NCBI GenBank assembly: GCA_012517155.1
Contig: JAAYVN010000064.1
Location: forward strand, 1 to 39,602
Length of the DNA: 39,602 nucleotides
Origin: Ignavibacteriales bacterium
Lineage (GTDB): Bacteria; Bacteroidota; Ignavibacteria; Ignavibacteriales; Ignavibacteriaceae
Reading direction: 5' to 3'
Part shown: one piece after another, positions 18,146-28,207 of the stretch
Layout: every line of letters starts with the position of its first letter
Numbering within the stretch: the stretch's first letter is position 1
Position numbers and translations under genes: made by a program
The notes under the pieces: generated by a model
Seen by the model: only the letters and a program-made list of their open reading frames with translations
Database searches by the model: none
What the model was told of the DNA's origin: nothing

Positions 18146-18175
18146 TTGAACCAAATATATCTATTTTTAGTCTAA
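18146..18175 (+). promoter_or_regulatory. Candidate ECF promoter upstream of the NHL-repeat gene
   Basis: TTGAACC (18146-18152), a 16-base spacer and AGTCTAA (18169-18175) match the pair of elements flanking the sigma gene at 20893-20922 and 20953-20982. Transcription would start about 7 bases downstream, giving a leader of about 70 bases before the ATG at 18254. TTGAACC is close to the GAACC -35 box common to many ECF sigma factors. Confidence 0.6.
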
Positions 18176-18253
18176 CATAAAAACCGGAATAACTCATTAT
18201 TCATTTGTTTTTCTTATCTTTAACTAATAAAATTAAATAATTCTGTCGGAAGA

Positions 18254-19105
18254 ATGTCTTTGAAAACAGTAGTACTCTTTTTCGTAATTACACTAACCCT
18301 TCATTCGCAGCAGTATCATTATGCTGGAGAAATTGGTGAATTCCGCCAAGCATCCTCCTTTACGATCAGCAGCCTTGGTTTTATATACGTAACCGATGTC
18401 GCTACGAACGAAATAGTGAAATATGATTTGCAGGGAAACAAACTTAAAGATATCGGTGGATTTGGGTGGGGAAATGCCCAATTCGACTCTCCCTCCGACA
18501 TCTGCACTGGTCCCCTGAACATCTACGTAGCCGATAAAAATAACCACAGAATACAAATATTCGATAAAGACCTTAACCTGATAACCCTGTTTAAATCCAA
18601 CTCCGTTTCCTATAACACTCCGGTTTTTGCATATCCCGTTGCTGTGGGGATTTCCAATCAGGGAGATATGTTCATACTCGACAGTGACAACCGGAATATT
18701 CATAAATATGATATAAACGGAAGTTACATAAACTCATTTGGGGGGATAGATGCTGGCGAACTCTCTATATCCGAACCGTTGGATTTACACGTTGATGGGA
18801 ACAAATCTGTATTCATACTGAACGGACAAAAAGAACTCCTGATTTACGACACATTTGGAAACCCACAGGCATTTGTGCAATACGAATTCTCCGTCACCTC
18901 GATAAACGGTTACGGAAGAACCATAACCCTTACGTCGGAAGATCAGATCACAATACTTGATGCAACTGAACCCGGTTTACCGGGCAACAAGTTAATATTA
19001 GCAGACACCCCTGAAAAAACCCGTTTTATTTCCTCACTATTGCATAACAATATTTTATATATATTAACAGAGACAAAAATCCTAATCTACCACCCTTTTC
19101 CCTGA
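18254..19105 (+). CDS. Secreted NHL-repeat / six-bladed beta-propeller protein
   Basis: The 283-residue product begins with a signal peptide (MSLKTVVLFFVITLTLHSQ) and is otherwise a beta-propeller of NHL-type repeats. Repeated units of the form GFIYVTDVATNEIVKYDLQG, LNIYVADKNNHRIQIFD and DMFILDSDNRNIHKYDING recur every 40-45 residues, with the typical D-x-x-N-x-x-I/V pattern. No catalytic motif is visible, so a binding or scaffold role outside the inner membrane is likely. It is the only gene in its plus-strand unit, divergent from the YmdB-like gene, and its upstream region carries the same promoter motif as the ECF operon further right. A GGAAG very close to the ATG may act as the ribosome binding site. 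Confidence 0.82.
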   Translation: MSLKTVVLFFVITLTLHSQQYHYAGEIGEFRQASSFTISSLGFIYVTDVATNEIVKYDLQGNKLKDIGGFGWGNAQFDSPSDICTGPLNIYVADKNNHRIQIFDKDLNLITLFKSNSVSYNTPVFAYPVAVGISNQGDMFILDSDNRNIHKYDINGSYINSFGGIDAGELSISEPLDLHVDGNKSVFILNGQKELLIYDTFGNPQAFVQYEFSVTSINGYGRTITLTSEDQITILDATEPGLPGNKLILADTPEKTRFISSLLHNNILYILTETKILIYHPFP

Positions 19106-19183
19106 CCTTCAATCAAACCTGTTTACTATGCAATCTGCTTTGAACTTCTTTGTGACATTACAGAATAATCAGTAAAAAGCCTT

Positions 19184-19204
19184 CTAGGGGACTTTTTTCC
19201 CTAG
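19184..19204. terminator. Possible hairpin terminator between convergent genes
   Basis: CTAGGG (19184-19189) pairs with CCCTAG (19199-19204) around a T-rich loop, in the 109-base gap between the plus-strand propeller gene and the minus-strand end of the sigma operon. On the minus strand five Ts follow soon after the stem. The stem is short, so this is tentative. Confidence 0.35.
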
Positions 19205-19214
19205 TATTGCTCTG

Positions 19215-19706
19215 TTATCTGTTAAATTTATTACGCCTGTTTTCCCTAATGATTTCCATCAATTCCCTCCTGAAACGCTTCTCATAAGTCACATACCTTG
19301 CCATCTGCTCGTTCGTTAAAAAACCTTTTACAGAATTTATGTGTTCATACTTTAAATTTACTATCTTTTTTTCAAGCTCAAGGTATTCTGTAACCGCTTT
19401 TTTAACTTCATTGCTCCCCTCCTCCTTTTCCTTCACCTTGGCTTCTATGAATTTTTCCAGACTGTCTAACCTGATCAGTGACTCTCTTCTTTTCTCTACA
19501 TATGCCTGCCGTTTTGCTAAGAATTTTGCTGAGGTTTCCGAATCCAGTTCCAACAAGTCCATTAACTTAACCATCTCAAGCTGGTCAATCTTTCTATATG
19601 CATTCCGCCTTCCCTGTGGATTTATCGATCCGACCCATATAAAAAACAACAGGATAATTATTATTCCGGTTCTCATTTTTTTATCTTTCATATTATAAAT
19701 CTTCAT
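19215..19706 (-). CDS. Secreted helical protein, Spy/CpxP-like, third gene of the ECF operon
   Basis: The 163-residue product has an N-terminal hydrophobic signal segment (TGIIIILLFFIWVGSINPQG) and then an almost wholly helical, charged body. Its ends look like the Spy/CpxP/ZraP heavy-metal-resistor group: LDLLELDSETSAKFLAKRQ at the front and an LTNEQ motif followed by YVTYEKRFRRELMEII at the back. The middle (LEKFIEAKVKEKEEG) is probably coiled coil. Its ATG overlaps the stop of the anti-sigma-type gene (ATGA), so the two are translationally coupled; ATGs at 19691 and 19676 are alternatives. A periplasmic sensor or chaperone role in the same stress response is likely, by position and family resemblance. 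Confidence 0.75.
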   Translation of the reverse strand: MKIYNMKDKKMRTGIIIILLFFIWVGSINPQGRRNAYRKIDQLEMVKLMDLLELDSETSAKFLAKRQAYVEKRRESLIRLDSLEKFIEAKVKEKEEGSNEVKKAVTEYLELEKKIVNLKYEHINSVKGFLTNEQMARYVTYEKRFRRELMEIIRENRRNKFNR

Positions 19707-20305
19707 TTACCCAGTTCCCGTAAAGCTAAATCAAGTTCTTCTTCACTCACATCCCCCAAATCATATCCGTACAAATCCGATGATGAATATACCGAGGCTA
19801 CTTCCTCTTCCCCTATCCCTAAACCCTTGATCAGTTCGCTATATACGCTGTTAAGTAAATCCTCATCATTTATCATTTCAATTTCCGAGTCATTATAAAG
19901 ACTGTACCCAATCTCATTTTCCGGAAAATCAAATGTCTCATTAATATTATTTCCTCCTCTGAATGCAAATACATACAACATTAAGACCGCGACAACGGCT
20001 ACTGATGCTGCTCCTTTGAATGAGAGGATAAAATCCTGCGTCCCTTTCCAAATTCCATTTATCATGCCGGCACGTCCTTTTTCCTTTTGAACCTTTTCCC
20101 TCACAACCGGTATAAGTTCACTGAAATATCCCGGGACGGGTTCTCCTTCAGGTTGATTCTTCAAAAGTACAAATCGACTCTTGATTTCCTCGTATTCTTT
20201 GAAAAGTTCTTTTCTTTGCCAGAGTTCGCTCTCAAAAACCTCTTTTTCTGCCGGAGTCATCATTCCGTCCAGGTATTTGATAATTCTTAAGTCATTCTTT
20301 TTCAT
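19703..20305 (-). CDS. Probable anti-sigma factor, single-pass membrane protein
   Basis: The 200-residue product follows the ECF sigma gene with a 14-base overlap, the usual place for an anti-sigma factor. Its N-terminal cytoplasmic part (about 1-90) contains IIKYLDGMMTPAEKEVFESEL, the start typical of anti-sigma proteins in this group. One membrane segment (about 97-114, GAASVAVVAVLMLYVFAF) follows, then an acidic external domain with many Glu/Asp/Tyr and an end block SEEELDLALRELGK. There is no zinc-binding HxxxCxxC motif, so it is not a ZAS-type factor. The function rests on position and layout more than on sequence identity. Confidence 0.78.
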   Translation of the reverse strand: MKKNDLRIIKYLDGMMTPAEKEVFESELWQRKELFKEYEEIKSRFVLLKNQPEGEPVPGYFSELIPVVREKVQKEKGRAGMINGIWKGTQDFILSFKGAASVAVVAVLMLYVFAFRGGNNINETFDFPENEIGYSLYNDSEIEMINDEDLLNSVYSELIKGLGIGEEEVASVYSSSDLYGYDLGDVSEEELDLALRELGK

Positions 20306-20870
20306 ATTTTTTACTCATAATTTCGTTAACTTTTGCAAATGCATGATAATAGTTGGCTTTCAAACCTCCAACGCTTTTACCGGTTATATCAGCAATCTCT
20401 TCATAGGTCATTTCGTCAAAATGCCTCATTATGAATATCTCTCTTTGTTTCGCCGGTATCTCTTTCAAAACTCTGTCCAGAAAATCAAGTTTTTCTTTGT
20501 TCTCCAATTCCTCAAGTATTGATGTTCTGCGGGTTTTCAAACTCACTTTTTCATTCTCCTCTTCACTCCCGTTAGAACCTGAAAAAATCTCCCTTACTCT
20601 TCTTCTTTTTAAATAGTTTAGTGTTCTTGTGGTTATTATTCTGTATAACCAAGTAGAAAATGAAGATTGAAATTTGAAGTCTCCAATACTCTTTAAGAGC
20701 GTAAGCATAACTTCCTGAACTATTTCATCAGCATCCATATGATTCCCTGCCATCTTTCGTGCATGCCAGTAGATCTTTTGCTGGTACTTTCTAAGAAGCA
20801 GATTCAATGAACTCTCGTCTCCTTCTTTATAGTTCCTTATTAACTGGAAATCACTTTCTTGTTCTGCCAT
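20292..20870 (-). CDS. ECF-type RNA polymerase sigma factor
   Basis: This 192-residue protein is a sigma-70 factor with only regions 2 and 4. Region 2 (about 24-95) has LLRKYQQKIYWHARKMAGN, DADEIVQEVMLTLLKSI and FSSFSTWLYRIITTRTLNYLKRRR-like -10 contacts. Region 4 (about 130-180) has LKEIPAKQREIFIMRHF followed by the helix-turn-helix MTYEEIADITGKSVGGLKANYYHAFAKV. It heads an operon with an anti-sigma-type membrane protein and a Spy-like protein and is divergent from another Spy-like gene. The 159-base gap contains two mirrored copies of one promoter motif, so it probably activates its own transcription. The layout suggests an envelope-stress or metal-stress role. Confidence 0.93.
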   Translation of the reverse strand: MAEQESDFQLIRNYKEGDESSLNLLLRKYQQKIYWHARKMAGNHMDADEIVQEVMLTLLKSIGDFKFQSSFSTWLYRIITTRTLNYLKRRRVREIFSGSNGSEEENEKVSLKTRRTSILEELENKEKLDFLDRVLKEIPAKQREIFIMRHFDEMTYEEIADITGKSVGGLKANYYHAFAKVNEIMSKKYEKE

Positions 20871-20892
20871 TATATGCTTCTGTCATCAATCT

Positions 20893-20922
20893 TTAGACAA
20901 TCCATTCGTCTTTAAGGTTTAA
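20893..20922 (-). promoter_or_regulatory. Candidate autoregulatory promoter of the ECF sigma operon
   Basis: On the minus strand TTAAACC (20922-20916), a 16-base spacer and TGTCTAA (20899-20893) form a two-part element 23 bases before the sigma gene start. The same two boxes with the same spacing occur on plus at 20953-20982. With so little room downstream the leader would be only about 15 bases, so the mRNA would have a very short 5' end. Confidence 0.6.
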
Positions 20923-20952
20923 TTCTTTTTTTTCACTACAAATGTAATAACT

Positions 20953-20982
20953 TTAAACCCTATCTCAAAAATGGCTGTCTAA
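20953..20982 (+). promoter_or_regulatory. Candidate ECF promoter of the Spy/CpxP-like gene
   Basis: TTAAACC (20953-20959), 16 bases, TGTCTAA (20976-20982), the same boxes and spacing as upstream of the sigma gene on the other strand. Transcription would begin near 20989, about 40 bases before the ATG at 21030, with an AAAGG ribosome binding site in the leader. Confidence 0.62.
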
Positions 20983-21029: not shown

Positions 21030-21500
21030 ATGCGTTCATTAAAATCAATCATACTCGTTTTAACAATGTTACTGGTCTCTACTCCAATCTATGCTCAAAG
21101 GGGCGATTGCTATTATATGCAGCAACGCCTGAATCTTACCGATTCACAGACGGAGTCGGTTCTTTCTCTCAGAAATGCTGCAGATAAGGATATTATTGAC
21201 CTTCGCGCTGAGCAGGATAAACTGATCCTTAAGAAGAAAGAACTTTACGGAAGCAAGTCTTTGGATAAATCAGCTCTAAGATCCATAGAGGAAAAAATTG
21301 TAGATAACCAGAAAAAAATCCGATTGAGAAACTTCGACTTCAGAATGGCTGTTTACGATCTGCTTGATGACAATCAGAAAGCCGAATGGAACAAAGGAGG
21401 TCAATTCTTCAGAAACAAGAAAGATATGGGAAACCGACGTTTCAATAATAATATGAACAGACCAAACCGTTTAAGAAATATGCGCAACCTCTGCTGGTAA
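21030..21500 (+). CDS. Periplasmic Spy/CpxP-family protein
   Basis: The 156-residue product has a clear signal peptide (SIILVLTMLLVSTPIYAQ, cut after YAQ) and a helical body with the LTxxQ-type motif of the Spy/CpxP/ZraP superfamily: LNLTDSQTESVLSLRNAA near residues 36-53 and a second copy-like LLDDNQKAEWNKGG near residues 111-124. The C-terminal tail is rich in Arg, Asn and Met (NNNMNRPNRLRNMRN). Family members are ATP-independent periplasmic chaperones or metal sensors. It is divergent from the ECF sigma gene, carries the same promoter element, and ends at a strong terminator, so it forms its own unit. Confidence 0.85.
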   Translation: MRSLKSIILVLTMLLVSTPIYAQRGDCYYMQQRLNLTDSQTESVLSLRNAADKDIIDLRAEQDKLILKKKELYGSKSLDKSALRSIEEKIVDNQKKIRLRNFDFRMAVYDLLDDNQKAEWNKGGQFFRNKKDMGNRRFNNNMNRPNRLRNMRNLCW

Positions 21501-21520: not shown

Positions 21521-21557
21521 AGACAGATTCCGGACCTCCCGGATCTGTCTTTTTTTT
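21521..21557 (+). terminator. Rho-independent terminator of the Spy/CpxP-like gene
   Basis: AGACAGATTCCGG (21521-21533) pairs with CCGGATCTGTCT (21539-21550), with one bulged T and a five-base loop, followed by a run of eight Ts to 21557. The T run overlaps the stop codon of the convergent SDR gene (21556-21558). Confidence 0.9.
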
Positions 21558-22272
21558 ATGATAAATCTCCCAGCTCAGGTCTTAGCACAATATCCTCAAC
21601 AACCATTTGTCCCTCATCCTTGTAACTCCATAAGATTGCTTTAGCAACTTCTTCGGTTTTCATCATTCTATCGTGAAATTTTTCCCGAACACTGGTGGCC
21701 CATATGTCCGTAACAGTAGCTCCGGGATATATATTCACAATTCTTATTTTATCCTTTCTTACTTCTTCCCTCAGGGATTCCGTGTAACCCTGTAAGCCCA
21801 TCTTGGAAGCTGCATAGGCACTACTGTTCGTAAAGATTTTCCTGTTTACTATCGAAAGGATGTTAATAATTGTTCCGCCCCCCTGCTCCCTCATAGAGCC
21901 CAGAACACTTTTCATTGCATAAATTGCACCATAAAGATTTGTGTCGATTATATTCGTGATGGTCTCTAAACTGTCGCTCATTGCAGTTTTAAACGATGAA
22001 ATTCCCGCTGCATTGATCAGACAGTCAATTCGCTTATCTTTTTGAACAATATTTTCAACAACTGATTTCACATCTTCAGGATTCCGTATATCCAATTTTG
22101 CGGTATTCAATCTTAGTCCCTGGGATTCTAATTCCGACCTGAGTTTTTCAAGTTCTTCACCCCTCCGTGCAGTTGCCCAGACATTAAATCCGTTTTTCAC
22201 AAATTCCACTGCGCATGCTCTTCCTATCCCGCTGCTTGCACCGGTTATCCAAACAATTTTCTTTTGGTTCAT
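21556..22272 (-). CDS. Short-chain dehydrogenase, sepiapterin-reductase candidate
   Basis: This 238-residue classical SDR has the NADP-binding TGASSGIG (about 10-17), the NAAG-type motif in LINAAGIS, the catalytic Ser in NILSIVNRK and the SAYAASK (YxxxK) motif. The Arg pair after the glycine loop (TARRGEE) suggests NADP preference. The C-terminus MVVEDIVLRPELGDL and the YPGATVTDIWA stretch recall, from memory, the Chlorobium sepiapterin reductase, which makes a biopterin. It follows folE and a PTPS-type gene with a 13-base gap, which supports that role. A general ketone or serine dehydrogenase (YdfG-like) is the alternative. As the last gene of the operon it meets the plus-strand terminator head on. 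Confidence 0.85.
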   Translation of the reverse strand: MNQKKIVWITGASSGIGRACAVEFVKNGFNVWATARRGEELEKLRSELESQGLRLNTAKLDIRNPEDVKSVVENIVQKDKRIDCLINAAGISSFKTAMSDSLETITNIIDTNLYGAIYAMKSVLGSMREQGGGTIINILSIVNRKIFTNSSAYAASKMGLQGYTESLREEVRKDKIRIVNIYPGATVTDIWATSVREKFHDRMMKTEEVAKAILWSYKDEGQMVVEDIVLRPELGDLS

Positions 22273-22285
22273 ATTTTCTTTTTCG

Positions 22286-22843
22286 CTAGGATTTAATTAG
22301 GTTTAAGAACTCCATCCTGGTTTTAGGATCGTCCTGAAAGCACCCGAGCATTGAGCTGGTAGTAGCGGATGCATTCTGCTTCTCCACTCCCCGCATTGCC
22401 ATGCACATGTGGAATCCCTCAGCTACTACCCCAACTCCCTGCGGATGTAAATAGTTATTTATAGTGTTGGCTATCTCCTGGGTCATCCTTTCCTGTACTT
22501 GAAGTCTTCGCGCAAAGACTTCAACAATTCTTGGAATTTTGCTCAATCCTACAATTTTACCGTTAGGGATATAAGCGACGTGTACTTTCCCGTAAAATGG
22601 AAGCATGTGATGTTCACACATTGAATAAAAATCAATGTTTTTCACCACAACCATTTCATCATATTCTTCCGTAAAAATAGCCTTGTTCAATACCTGTTCA
22701 ATATCCATTTTATAGCCCCTGGTAAGATATTCGTAAGCCCTTGCAACCCGTTTAGGAGTACTCAACAATCCCTCTCTGCCGGGATCCTCTCCGATTTCCT
22801 CCAAAATCCCCTTTACAAATTCTTTAATTTTCTCACTCTCCAT
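22286..22843 (-). CDS. folE: GTP cyclohydrolase I
   Basis: FolE converts GTP to 7,8-dihydroneopterin triphosphate, the entry to folate, biopterin and some deazapurine pathways. The 185-residue protein has the zinc ligands in [12 protein letters not shown] and [14 protein letters not shown], plus [23 protein letters not shown] and the end block TTSSMLGCF. All are standard type IA features. It overlaps the PTPS gene by 11 bases and precedes the SDR, so dihydroneopterin triphosphate made here would be the direct substrate of the PTPS product. Confidence 0.97.
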
Positions 22844-23252
22844 ACTTCTCGCCTTTATATTCTATATAATTATTTTCCGTTTCGTATAATTTTACGGAAT
22901 AGAGTTTCCCCGCCGGTATTTTCCCCTCCAATTGATTCCATATAGCTATGCATATATTTTCCGAGGTCGGAATGATCCCCTCCATAAAATCCACATCCAG
23001 ATTCAGGTTTTTATGGTCCAGTTTATCGGTTACGTTTTCTTTAATAATCCTTTTAAGTTTCTTAAGGTCTAAAAGATATCCGGTTTTAGGATCAATTTCT
23101 CCGGCAACCATAACCTCCAGAACATAATTATGCCCATGCCCGTTCGGATTACTGCACTTGTCGTAGATTTCGCAATTCTCCGCCTCGCTCAGACCGGGAT
23201 TATACAGCCTGTGACTGGCACTAAACACTTCACGCCGAGTTATATAGATCAT
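22833..23252 (-). CDS. 6-pyruvoyltetrahydropterin synthase-type enzyme (PTPS/QueD family)
   Basis: This COG0720 protein of 139 residues acts on dihydroneopterin triphosphate. It has FSASHRL with zinc ligand His14, the C-x5-HGH motif (Cys33, His39, His41) inside [12 protein letters not shown], the catalytic pair LDH (Asp79-His80) followed by KNL, and KLYETENN with Glu124. The C-x5-HGH spacing and the GEIDPKTG and KNLNLDV blocks are those of eukaryote-like 6-pyruvoyltetrahydropterin synthase; QueD enzymes of queuosine synthesis usually have C-x3-HGH. So a biopterin-type role is favoured over queuosine. The start is fixed by AGGAG in the last codons of bcp. It overlaps folE by 11 bases. Confidence 0.88.
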
Positions 23253-23711
23253 TTATTCTCCTAAAGCGGATAAAACTTCTTCCGTATGACCTTCCACTTT
23301 TACCTTGGGAAATATTTTTGAAATTTTTCCTTCTTCGTTAATAATAACAGTAGTCCTCTCAACGCCCATATATTTTTTTCCATACATGCTTTTTTCTTTC
23401 CAGACTCCAAATGCCTCAAGCACTTTTTTTTCCGGATCTGCGAGCAAACTGAATGGCAGGTCATACTTTTCGGCAAATTTTTTATGGCTTGCAACCGAGT
23501 CCGGACTTACTCCGAAAATTACTGCTTTAACACCCTTGAACTTCGGGAAACTATCCCTGAAATTACAAGCCTCTTTTGTACATCCGCTGGTATTGTCTTT
23601 CGGATAAAAATAGAGGACAACTTTCTTTCCTTTATAATCAGCAAGATTTATTTCATTTCCGTTCTGGTCTTCCAATTTTACTGCAGGTGCTTTTTTGCCA
23701 ACTTCTATCAT
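23253..23711 (-). CDS. bcp: Thioredoxin-dependent peroxiredoxin, Bcp/PrxQ type
   Basis: This 152-residue peroxiredoxin reduces hydrogen peroxide and organic peroxides. The motif YFYPKDNTSGCTKEACNFRD (about residues 31-50) holds the peroxidatic Cys and, five residues on, the second Cys typical of the atypical two-Cys PrxQ group. Ser/Arg partners are in GVERTTVIIN. AGGAG lies before the ATG, and the next gene starts directly after the stop, so it is in the middle of the prx-rhodanese-bcp-PTPS-folE-SDR operon. Confidence 0.94.
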   Translation of the reverse strand: MIEVGKKAPAVKLEDQNGNEINLADYKGKKVVLYFYPKDNTSGCTKEACNFRDSFPKFKGVKAVIFGVSPDSVASHKKFAEKYDLPFSLLADPEKKVLEAFGVWKEKSMYGKKYMGVERTTVIINEEGKISKIFPKVKVEGHTEEVLSALGE

Positions 23712-23730
23712 TTATTCACTCCTATTATAT

Positions 23731-24096
23731 TTAATACTGTTTGATCTTCGGATCAACTGTTAAAGCCCAAAGAGCTATTCCCCCTCTTAGGTTTACTAAA
23801 TTAGAGTATCCTTGTTTCAAGAGAAAGTTACAAACCGTCATACTCCTGTTTCCATGATGGCAATAAACGATAAGTGATTCATCCTTCCCCAGTTTATCGT
23901 ATTCATTATTAAATTTGCTTAACGGAAAAAGCTCGCATCCTTCAATGCGAGCCAGATTATTTTCCCATTCTTCACGAACATCAATAAGTCTTACTTTCTC
24001 ACCTGAATCAAGAATCTCCTTAACTTCATAAGGATTTAAATTCCGGATCATAGAGTTTTTGCTTTTAGGCTTGAAGAGCTGCTTTAATATTCTCAT
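23731..24096 (-). CDS. Rhodanese-like domain protein
   Basis: The 121-residue protein is a single rhodanese domain: PYEVKEILDSGEKVRLIDVREEWE, then the active loop VYCHHGNRSM with the sulfur-accepting Cys, then LRGGIALWA. Such proteins carry persulfide sulfur or act in thiol redox steps. With the ATG at 24096 it overlaps the upstream peroxiredoxin gene by 32 bases; an ATG at 24051 (MIRNLNPYEV) would give a domain-only protein of 106 residues with no overlap, and I cannot decide between them from the weak ribosome binding sites. Between two peroxiredoxins, it may take part in thiol or sulfide oxidation control. Confidence 0.88.
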   Translation of the reverse strand: MRILKQLFKPKSKNSMIRNLNPYEVKEILDSGEKVRLIDVREEWENNLARIEGCELFPLSKFNNEYDKLGKDESLIVYCHHGNRSMTVCNFLLKQGYSNLVNLRGGIALWALTVDPKIKQY

Positions 24097-24790: not shown

Positions 24791-27700
24791 TTACTTCATT
24801 AAAACAAGCTTTTTGATCTGTACAAAATCGCCTGCATTCAGTTTGTAGAAATAAACGCCGCTGGCAAGATTACTGCCGTCAAATGATACAGTATACTTTC
24901 CTGTCTGCTGGAATTCATTTACAAGATTTGTCACCAGTTCACCCGATATCGAGTAAACGGATAATTCAACTCTTGCGTCAACCGGTATCTGATAAGTGAT
25001 CTTTGTAACCGGGTTGAACGGATTCGGGTAATTCTGCTCAAGAGCAAAATCACTTACGATACTGCTAAACTCAACCTTGACTTCCTGGGAGTATGCAAAA
25101 GTTCCGTCAAAGTCAACTTGCTTCAGTCTGTAGCTCAATTCACCCTTTAAGGTCAAGCCCGTTAAATTATCTGTGAACTGATAGCTGCTAATCTCAGAAG
25201 TTGTTCCCTTGCCGGAAACAAATCCGATTTTAGCCCATGATCCGTTGATATTTCTCTCAACTTCAAAACCACTGTTATTTGTCTCGGTTGCAGTTACCCA
25301 GTTAAGGCTAACGCTGCTGCCCGTTACAGAAGCTTCAAAGAGACTAAGTTCAACAGGAACTAATTCCGGATTTCCGACAACTAACAACCAGTCTGAACCA
25401 ATTCTAAGTCCATCAAGTCGCAGGGTTGCAGCAGTTGATGCACCACCTTGCCTGAAAGCAACGCTACCAAGATTAACCGGATCGGTTGTTGCATCCGTCT
25501 GCTCTAAAAGTGCGGCAGGTTCGGTTCCGCCAACCGGGTTTACCCATAATTTAACTATGTCAGTACTTTCTCCGGCAACGAACTGATATTTAAGTACTAC
25601 AAGCGTAGTTGTGTTCATGGTATAGTTGAATGGCGTGTAAACTATGTCATTTCCGCCCTTGCTAACACCAAATGCAAGCAGGTTTTCCGCATTTCTCTTC
25701 ACATAAACTCTACCACGGAAGGTTGTGCTTATTGTGGTTGGTCCTAAGTGAACGAAATAATCGCCTGCTTCAGTAGCGGCAGTTACGTTTACCAGGAAGG
25801 ATGTATAGAAGCTGCCGGTAGTTTGTTCAGCGAAGTTCCTGTGAACATCCTCACCCGAAGGTCCGAGCAAGCCAACTGAATTTCCTTCCCCACCGCCAAG
25901 ATATCCGGGGAATCCAAGCGCCGGTGGATTAACTGCAATAGAATTTGTACCAGCACCGCTGTGTGCAGTCCATCCGGAATTGGATAATAATGTACCATCC
26001 GGTAAATCAAAGTTATCAGCATAAAATACCGGAGTTACAAATGGAGTGCTTTCGTCAGCACCTTTGTATGGCTGAACAGCATCTCTCAAATCACCGTCTA
26101 TATCGGTTGTGATTCCAGCAATCGGTGTACCTGCTAGATCAATATCTCCGGAGGAAGAACCTACCAGATGTAGGTCTGTACCGCTGACAAAGAAAACCGG
26201 TTTGCTAACAGAGTTCGCATCCTGAGTTGTTACCTGCCAGGCTGGTAAATCAGCATAGCTGGTTCCCTGATAGTTTACAAGGTTCTGCTCTGATTTAAGT
26301 ACGTTATAGTTCGAAGTCAAAACAGTTGTAGCGGGAACAAGAGCTATTGCGGATGATCCCGTATTTCCGGTGTGTTTGTTGATAATAATATTATTCTTGA
26401 GATCAACATTAACCGGACCGGTGCCATTTGTATGATATCCGATTGCATGACTTACAAGCGTGGAAGCGTTGTTATTTACAACAATCGTATTATAGTAAGC
26501 CTTGATATTTCCCATGTTCTGGGCTGAGCGGAATCCGATTCCGTATGTATATCTGGTCTCGTCTGCAGCGCCAATATTTATCATGTTGTTCACAACGCTG
26601 ATAATATCCGTAGGTTCCGCACCGTTTCCTGCGAATGCAATTCCTATCAAATAGGCAGATGCATTAAGGGTTTTCTCGAGACAGTTTATCACGTTACCTT
26701 CGATATTCAGGTTACCAACGTGACCGGTAATATAAATTCCGTGATTGTATGTATCCGTAGCACCGGCAGATGTAGGAAGGACATGAATAGTGTTGCCGAT
26801 GATTTCGCTGTTTGTAAGATAAATCGTGGCAACGCCTCTTGTACCGCAGTACATCTCGTTGTTCACAATACTAAAGGAATTTGCAACAGATGCGCCACCC
26901 CAAGGAGCAAGGGCATCGCGTCTTACCGGTCTTTCCGGTGTGCCTATCTGGCAGTTTTCTACTCTGAATCCGGTAACTCCGCCAAGATCGTTAATAACCG
27001 CACCATACCTAAAATTGGTTTGTCCCGTTATATAGTTTTTAATAACAAGGTTTTTCAGCGTAACGCTGTCCGCATCAGCATGGTTAAGTGTGAAAGGAAC
27101 ATCAACCACCGGGGTTATTTGTTCAGTGCTGATAACCAGATTTCTTGTATCTGTACCGTTATTGCTTCCGTCAAATGTAATATTTCCTGTCTTGAATCCA
27201 ATCAAATATGGACCATTACCTACTGATGGATTTGAAGTCAGAAGTAAAGTAACATTCCTGCCAGGAGCCGGTTTGATGGTAACAAAAGCATCTTGCCAAA
27301 GAGGCGGATTAAATTCAAATGCTGCGCCCCTCAGGGTGTCCGCATCAAGCAGAAAGTTTGTGATTCCAACTGCACCTGTGGAATTGAGAGTCTCCATTGC
27401 CTCATCGAAGGATGCAAAACCTTTTGGGTGTGTTCCCTGAGGTATGTAATAATCACCTGTGAGCATATTTGCATATACCACCCCGATCCATAAATCAATC
27501 TGAAGTGCCCAGCTGCTTGGAGATCCATACTGCCAGAATGTTCCATCGTTCCATCTTTCCCAAACGCGTGACGGGGATGCACCGTTTGGTGACTGGTTTG
27601 AAATCAATGCAAATTTATCATCAACAGTGAGTGACCACTCAATACCAACAAACACTGACATTCCGTCAAGTTCGATGTCGCCGATTGATTCTTTTGCAAG

Positions 27701-28135
27701 ACTGACAACAGTTGGTCCGGTTGTATCAATTTCACTTACAAGTTTTGGAATTGATACAATCAAATCGCCGGGGGCGCCGTTAATTGCAACCTGCCTTATT
27801 ACAATAAATACAGTATCGGATGAACCGACGACCTGCTTAGCTCCAAAAAAGAGAATAAGCGAATGTGCCATAGGATTATTCATAGCGAAGTCAAATCTCT
27901 GATACTTACCGGTATCAAAATAATCGTTCGTACCATTTACGTAGCCTGCCGGCTGACCGCTTATTGTAGCCGTGTAAATTACTCCCGGGGGAACCATGTA
28001 ATGCAGTGTGTCATTGCTTTCCGTTCCAACACTTCTATCGAATTGCCGGTCGGAAGAAACTGCATTCCTCTGCTGAGCATTTACCAGGCTTACAGTTAGT
28101 ATGAGAAGCAGAAAGATATAGATTGCTTTCCTCAT
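24791..28135 (-). CDS. Large secreted beta-helix protein with T9SS C-terminal sorting domain
   Basis: The product is about 1114 residues. It has a signal peptide (MRKAIYIFLLLILTVSLVNA). After a start region of unknown type, right-handed beta-helix repeats (about 315-640) carry units such as NITFDGSNNG and NIIINKHTG. A lectin-like or LamG-like domain (about 705-920, from YADNFDLPDGTLLSNSGWTAH) and a fibronectin-like stretch (about 928-1020) follow. The T9SS type A sorting domain (about 1030-1114) has LEQNYPNPFNPVTKITY, LASGVYFYKLNAG and the KKLVLMK end. It should be exported through the outer membrane and attached or released. I start at ATG 28135, because AAAGG lies seven bases before it; an ATG at 28150 lacks a site. 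No catalytic residues can be named. Confidence 0.9.
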   Translation of the reverse strand: MRKAIYIFLLLILTVSLVNAQQRNAVSSDRQFDRSVGTESNDTLHYMVPPGVIYTATISGQPAGYVNGTNDYFDTGKYQRFDFAMNNPMAHSLILFFGAKQVVGSSDTVFIVIRQVAINGAPGDLIVSIPKLVSEIDTTGPTVVSLAKESIGDIELDGMSVFVGIEWSLTVDDKFALISNQSPNGASPSRVWERWNDGTFWQYGSPSSWALQIDLWIGVVYANMLTGDYYIPQGTHPKGFASFDEAMETLNSTGAVGITNFLLDADTLRGAAFEFNPPLWQDAFVTIKPAPGRNVTLLLTSNPSVGNGPYLIGFKTGNITFDGSNNGTDTRNLVISTEQITPVVDVPFTLNHADADSVTLKNLVIKNYITGQTNFRYGAVINDLGGVTGFRVENCQIGTPERPVRRDALAPWGGASVANSFSIVNNEMYCGTRGVATIYLTNSEIIGNTIHVLPTSAGATDTYNHGIYITGHVGNLNIEGNVINCLEKTLNASAYLIGIAFAGNGAEPTDIISVVNNMINIGAADETRYTYGIGFRSAQNMGNIKAYYNTIVVNNNASTLVSHAIGYHTNGTGPVNVDLKNNIIINKHTGNTGSSAIALVPATTVLTSNYNVLKSEQNLVNYQGTSYADLPAWQVTTQDANSVSKPVFFVSGTDLHLVGSSSGDIDLAGTPIAGITTDIDGDLRDAVQPYKGADESTPFVTPVFYADNFDLPDGTLLSNSGWTAHSGAGTNSIAVNPPALGFPGYLGGGEGNSVGLLGPSGEDVHRNFAEQTTGSFYTSFLVNVTAATEAGDYFVHLGPTTISTTFRGRVYVKRNAENLLAFGVSKGGNDIVYTPFNYTMNTTTLVVLKYQFVAGESTDIVKLWVNPVGGTEPAALLEQTDATTDPVNLGSVAFRQGGASTAATLRLDGLRIGSDWLLVVGNPELVPVELSLFEASVTGSSVSLNWVTATETNNSGFEVERNINGSWAKIGFVSGKGTTSEISSYQFTDNLTGLTLKGELSYRLKQVDFDGTFAYSQEVKVEFSSIVSDFALEQNYPNPFNPVTKITYQIPVDARVELSVYSISGELVTNLVNEFQQTGKYTVSFDGSNLASGVYFYKLNAGDFVQIKKLVLMK

Positions 28136-28142
28136 AATAGTG

Positions 28143-28147
28143 CCTTT
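28143..28147 (-). promoter_or_regulatory. Ribosome binding site deciding the T9SS-substrate start
   Basis: AAAGG on minus lies seven bases before the ATG at 28135 and inside the longer frame from 28150, so it favours the start that gives a signal peptide beginning MRKAIY. Confidence 0.7.
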
Positions 28148-28207
28148 CATTTGTTTTTTGTTTTTTGATTTTATTTAATTTATCCGCAATACGAATATTT
28201 AAAAAAC

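What the first reader, a model, noticed from the sequence alone, without database searches (positions are those of the whole stretch)
18146..20982. Three matching ECF promoter elements define a small autoregulated envelope regulon
TTRAACC-N16-WGTCTAA occurs at 18146-18175 (plus, before the NHL-propeller gene), 20893-20922 (minus, before the sigma operon) and 20953-20982 (plus, before the Spy/CpxP-like gene). All three have exactly the same spacing and correct orientation, and every target encodes an exported protein or the regulator itself. This gives a likely recognition motif for this sigma factor and assigns the otherwise orphan propeller protein to its regulon.
Basis: partly seen in the sequence, partly recalled or inferred. 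Interest (0 to 1): 0.72.

Follow-up and report, generated by a model that had tools for sequence, protein, structure and literature searches.

The report
Self-regulated sigma-factor envelope stress module
Two facing promoter boxes beside a sigma-factor gene are a conserved, self-activating switch for a cell-envelope protection system found across the Ignavibacteriaceae; the third box, in front of a propeller-protein gene, is weaker and seen only in this genome, so that gene's membership is unproven.

Summary
The three boxes are real, at the stated places and spacing, and are the only exact matches in the 3.29 Mb genome. Two of them (20893-20922 minus, sigma operon; 20953-20982 plus, Spy-like gene) are very well supported. 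The same back-to-back pair, TTAAACC-N16-TGTCNAA, precedes the orthologous sigma and Spy-like genes throughout the family: 30/30 loci for the sigma box, and a divergent box at all 25 named Ignavibacteria loci. Across 61 genomes the motif occurs 128 times against 26 for the reversed control. Of 54 sites outside the sigma/Spy pair, 37 are intergenic and just upstream of an exported protein (69%; random positions 1.3%). So the regulon is larger in relatives: second Spy-like proteins, outer-membrane barrels, efflux adaptors. The third box (18146-18175) is an outlier: PWM 13.2 against 25.6 and 26.1, below all 80 training sites, and absent before 28 orthologous propeller genes. It may still be a weak, genome-specific site. 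The third operon gene models as a CnrX-like periplasmic protein and the second as a class I anti-sigma, suggesting sigma / anti-sigma / periplasmic sensor control. All functional steps are inferred; no transcription data exist.

The parts
20292..20870 (-). ECF sigma factor (192 aa), orthologous in about 53 of 61 genomes of the family
   Evidence: Pfam Sigma70_r2 and r4_2; orthologs 44-60% identical
20893..20922 (-). Promoter of the sigma operon: -35 TTAAACC, -10 TGTCTAA, 16 nt between
   Evidence: PWM 25.6; box present at 30/30 family loci and 25/25 named loci
20953..20982 (+). Divergent promoter of the Spy-like gene: TTAAACC-N16-TGTCTAA
   Evidence: PWM 26.1; divergent box at 25/25 named Ignavibacteria loci
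21030..21500 (+). Spy/CpxP-like (LTXXQ) exported protein, 156 aa
   Evidence: Pfam PF07813, E 2.5e-6; divergent neighbour in 20/20 family loci and 25/25 named loci
19703..20305 (-). Membrane anti-sigma factor, 200 aa: N-terminal three-helix bundle plus fourth helix, one TM helix near 92-115, extracytoplasmic tail; overlaps the sigma gene by 14 nt
   Evidence: AF2 model (mean pLDDT 76, N-terminus >90); 15 of 16 Foldseek hits are RsiW, RslA, MucA or ChrR; hydropathy
19215..19697 (-). CnrX/Spy-like exported helical protein, 160 aa, third gene of the operon
   Evidence: AF2 pLDDT 91; top 14 PDB hits are CnrX, rank 16 NccX (best E 0.012); conserved third gene
18146..18175 (+). Weak variant box TTGAACC-N16-AGTCTAA, 78 nt before the propeller gene; function uncertain
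   Evidence: PWM 13.2, below all training sites; absent in 28/28 relatives
18254..19105 (+). Exported NHL-repeat propeller protein (283 aa); possible lineage-specific regulon member
   Evidence: Pfam NHL 7e-14; orthologs in most family genomes, commonly 10-14 kb from the sigma gene on the same contig

Best explanation
The 20893-20982 segment is a back-to-back pair of promoters recognised by the adjacent ECF sigma factor. One box drives the sigma operon (sigma, membrane anti-sigma, CnrX/Spy-like periplasmic protein); the other drives a Spy-like periplasmic chaperone. Proposed working (inferred): at rest the anti-sigma holds the sigma at the inner membrane. An envelope insult, read by the CnrX/Spy-like protein or by the anti-sigma's outer part, releases the sigma. 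Sigma-RNA polymerase then fires both boxes, amplifying the sigma and making Spy-like chaperone plus, in relatives, barrels, lipoproteins and efflux adaptors. Co-expression of the anti-sigma closes the loop. The propeller box is at most a weaker, recently gained member.
For: Exact sites and genome-wide uniqueness. Sigma box at 30/30 orthologs about 47-60% identical and 25/25 named loci. Four-gene module in 20/20 neighbourhoods where contigs allow and nearly all of 25 others. TTAAAC-N-GTC still within 150 nt of 30 of 52 more distant sigma genes against a background of 0.6% per window. Motif 128 versus 26 control in 61 genomes; 37 of 54 non-sigma/Spy sites intergenic before exported proteins versus 1.3% of random positions. 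Barrel orthologs carry the box. Anti-sigma and CnrX-like folds.
Against: No transcription start, binding or expression data. The CnrX match has a modest Foldseek E-value (0.012), and VIA-align ranks unrelated helical bundles as high. The family shows no conserved His/Met metal ligands, so signal and sensing step are unknown. No biochemical proof that the anti-sigma binds this sigma. Another of the genome's seven ECF-like sigma hits could share the boxes. No strong box was found in this genome outside the sigma/Spy pair.
Confidence: 0.88

Rival explanations
1. The propeller box at 18146 is a genuine, weaker promoter of the same sigma, gained in this lineage when the propeller gene came to lie next to ymdB, 2 kb from the operon.
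For: Third-best site of the window with a wide gap to the next (13.2 versus 5.5); expected 0.017 times in 6 kb; exact spacing and orientation; TTGAACC (L307, L311) and AGTC (L295) each occur before barrel targets in relatives; target is exported.
Against: 0 of 28 orthologs have it; below all 80 training sites; about nine sites this good expected per random genome; long 78-nt leader.
Confidence: 0.5
2. The propeller box is a chance match and the propeller gene is transcribed by the housekeeping sigma.
For: Not conserved; TTNAAC-N18-GTCNAA matches in the genome (7) do not exceed the reversed control (5 and 14); TTRAACC-N16-WGTCNAA expected 0.8 per genome by chance.
Against: Position beside the operon, correct strand and intergenic location make pure chance unlikely, although the test is post hoc.
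Confidence: 0.48
3. The paired boxes are operators of a DNA-binding regulator rather than sigma promoters.
For: Conserved paired sites near a regulator can be operators; none tested biochemically.
Against: Two-part motif with fixed spacing (44 of 45 autoregulatory sites at the same spacing), AAC and GTC cores typical of ECF -35 and -10 elements, constant orientation toward the gene, and strict linkage to an ECF sigma gene.
Confidence: 0.04
4. The system is a metal-responsive Cnr-type switch (CnrX-like sensor detects a metal and frees the sigma).
For: CnrX and NccX are the top structural matches of the third gene; HlyD-type efflux adaptors and MacB follow the motif in some relatives.
Against: No His or Met column is conserved apart from the start Met; anti-sigma resembles class I rather than CnrY; main targets are chaperones and barrels.
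Confidence: 0.12

Closest known systems
CnrYXH of Cupriavidus metallidurans (PMC7689651)
   Same: ECF sigma + membrane anti-sigma + CnrX-fold periplasmic protein in one locus; efflux among targets in some relatives
   Different: Anti-sigma looks class I, not CnrY (class II, PMC7406223); no conserved metal ligands; divergent Spy-like target; different regulon
RpoE-RseA and SigW-RsiW envelope-stress systems
   Same: Autoregulated ECF sigma with class I membrane anti-sigma; envelope targets; AAC / TC-type promoter elements
   Different: Own promoter TTAAACC-N16-TGTCNAA; no RseB-like gene in the operon; a CnrX/Spy-like third gene instead
Spy and CpxP (Cpx/Bae regulons of enterobacteria)
   Same: Small periplasmic LTXXQ helical protein induced as an envelope-stress effector (function by family)
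   Different: Under an ECF sigma rather than two-component systems; sequence similarity weak
ECF-type SM6 promoters of Flavobacterium psychrophilum (PMC9723704)
   Same: Bacteroidota ECF promoters that include a sigma/anti-sigma operon
   Different: -10 CGT box and T9SS targets; the string TTAAAC does not occur in that paper's main text

Membership tests
ECF (group IV) sigma factor | Sigma70 region 2 and region 4 only, about 200 aa | tested here: met
   TIGR02937 E 5.7e-32
ECF (group IV) sigma factor | Autoregulated from a two-part promoter with conserved spacing | tested here: met
   Sequence level only: 30/30 and 25/25 loci; transcription not testable here
Class I anti-sigma factor (ASDI) | N-terminal three-helix bundle plus fourth helix, next to the sigma gene | tested here: met
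   E-values weak (0.16 at best) but 15 of 16 hits are class I anti-sigmas
Class I anti-sigma factor (ASDI) | Binds and inhibits the cognate sigma | not testable with these tools
   Needs pull-down or in vitro transcription
CnrX metal sensor | CnrX helical hairpin fold | tested here: inconclusive
   Foldseek top 14 hits but E 0.012; VIA Z 9.5 over 106 residues, tied with unrelated bundles
CnrX metal sensor | Conserved His/Glu/Met metal ligands | tested here: not met
   No His or Met column reaches 50% in 40 homologs apart from the start Met; some Glu columns do
Spy/CpxP (LTXXQ) family | LTXXQ profile and signal peptide | tested here: met
   PF07813 28.6 bits, cut-off 24.3; hydrophobic N-terminus
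This sigma's regulon (propeller gene) | Box matching the family consensus, kept in orthologs | tested here: not met
   PWM 13.2; 0 of 28

The most novel reading that the evidence does not exclude
A family-wide, undescribed envelope-stress pathway of Ignavibacteria in which a CnrX-fold protein that lacks the metal site acts as a misfolding sensor for a class I anti-sigma, controlling Spy-like chaperones, OMP_b-brl_3 barrels and efflux through TTAAACC-N16-TGTCNAA.
Probability: 0.4. Interest if true: 0.65.

Novelty: new variant of a known kind. Interest (0 to 1): 0.5.

Why it matters
Promoter motifs and regulons of ECF sigmas in Bacteroidota are poorly known, and only about 6% of Bacteroidetes ECFs were linked to class I anti-sigmas (PMC7406223). 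Here a sharp promoter consensus, a conserved four-gene module and a predicted regulon are obtained for a whole family of mostly uncultured bacteria. That makes an envelope-stress pathway testable, and suggests that a CnrX-like sensor fold serves beyond metal resistance.

Tried and rejected
Relaxed motif in the own genome (up to 2 or 3 mismatches): no excess over the reversed control, so weak sites cannot be trusted by score alone. Spacing variants in the own genome: one extra site, inside a gene. Same-genus genomes: none held, so recent conservation of the propeller box could not be tested. htpX as a further member (ATGAACC-N16-TGTCTAA, 25 nt before its start): not conserved, 0 of 29, left as a candidate. 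Closest barrel homolog in the own genome: no box (L317). Literature on this motif or module: nothing found in the held library; the ECF reclassification paper is not held, so the ECF group number is unknown.

Full report
Observation.

Genes. 20292-20870 (minus) is an ECF sigma. 19703-20305 is a 200-aa protein with one membrane helix, without Pfam matches; its AF2 model has an N-terminal three-helix bundle and 15 of 16 PDB hits are class I anti-sigmas. 19215-19697 is a small exported helical protein whose model (pLDDT 91) finds CnrX as the first 14 PDB hits and NccX at rank 16. A second aligner gives CnrX Z 9.5 over 106 residues but also unrelated helical bundles at similar Z, and metal ligands are not conserved; so a CnrX/Spy-like fold is likely, metal sensing is not shown. 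21030-21500 is a Spy/CpxP-like LTXXQ protein. 18254-19105 is an exported NHL-repeat propeller.

Conservation of the pair. Sigma orthologs at about 44-60% identity exist in about 53 of 61 family genomes. All 30 loci fetched (the window's own among them) carry an AAC-N17/18-GTC box 38-50 nt before the sigma start, counted from AAC, nearly all as TTAAAC[CT]-N-TGTC. All 25 named loci at or above 47% identity (Ignavibacteriaceae, Melioribacter, Ignavibacterium MAGs; partly the same genomes as before) have both this box and a divergent one. The Spy / sigma / anti-sigma / CnrX-like order is kept in the 20 neighbourhoods (in two of them the anti-sigma ORF sits in place but falls below the phmmer cut-off, and one contig ends early) and in the other named loci. 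Sigma / anti-sigma / CnrX-like order reaches further into Bacteroidota, Kapaibacteria and a few other phyla, with TTAAAC-N-GTC still upstream in 30 of 52. This is strong phylogenetic evidence that the boxes are the promoters of this sigma.

Regulon in relatives. TTAAACC-N16-TGTCNAA occurs 128 times in 61 genomes against 26 for the reversed pattern. I fetched 54 distinct sites outside the sigma/Spy pair: 37 are intergenic and within 130 nt of a start codon of a protein with a signal-like N-terminus (69%; random positions in the same DNA 1.3%). Targets include further Spy-like proteins, OMP_b-brl_3/TonB-type barrels, fibronectin-type secreted proteins, lipoproteins, HlyD-type adaptors and MacB (one barrel checked with Pfam; the rest named by eye from sequence). 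Most of the closest orthologs of one barrel carry the box.

The propeller box. A PWM from 80 sites of relatives scores the sigma and Spy boxes 25.6 and 26.1 (training median 25.4) and the propeller box 13.2, below the weakest training site, 15.4. Its two substitutions were never seen in 44 autoregulatory sites. None of 28 assessable propeller orthologs (34-42% identical) has a box, although the propeller gene commonly lies 10-14 kb from the sigma gene on the same contig; ymdB is its neighbour only here. In its favour, each substitution is found before a barrel target in a relative (L307, L311, L295), it is the clear third-best site of the window, and a match that good is expected 0.017 times in 6 kb. 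I put its chance of being real near one half.

Mechanism. Shown at sequence level: promoter motif, divergent arrangement, conserved module, likely exported targets. Inferred: recognition by this sigma, release from the anti-sigma on envelope stress, the CnrX/Spy-like protein as sensor or co-regulator, and negative feedback through the operon.

Known kinds. It works like RpoE/RseA or SigW/RsiW circuits with a CnrX-like third component; it is not a CnrYXH system in the strict sense, because the metal-ligand feature was tested and not met and the anti-sigma resembles class I. No paper describing this motif or module was found in the held library, which lacks most subscription journals.

Noticed in passing
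G000:C146:5467-6300 (-), locus L319: htpX-type M48 protease, a classic envelope-stress gene, has ATGAACC-N16-TGTCTAA 25 nt before its start in this genome only (0 of 29 relatives).
   Followed up: yes
window 18254-19105 and relatives L062-L090: The propeller gene stays on the same contig as the sigma gene, mostly 10-14 kb apart, in many genera, although the box is not shared.
   Followed up: partly
window 21556-24096: SDR, FolE, QueD and Bcp-like genes beside the Spy-like gene form a cluster syntenic with the sigma module in many relatives.
   Followed up: partly
window 24791-28150 (-): Large exported protein with a C-terminal FALEQNYPNPFNPVTKITYQI... segment resembling a type IX secretion sorting signal (by eye).
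   Followed up: no
L166 and L178 (CROMO_A_100): One MAG carries two diverged copies of the whole module; contamination of the assembly may explain it.
   Followed up: no
L276, L278, L282: Strong box before a multi-pass membrane protein (by eye DUF1624-like) in one genus, an unusual target.
   Followed up: no
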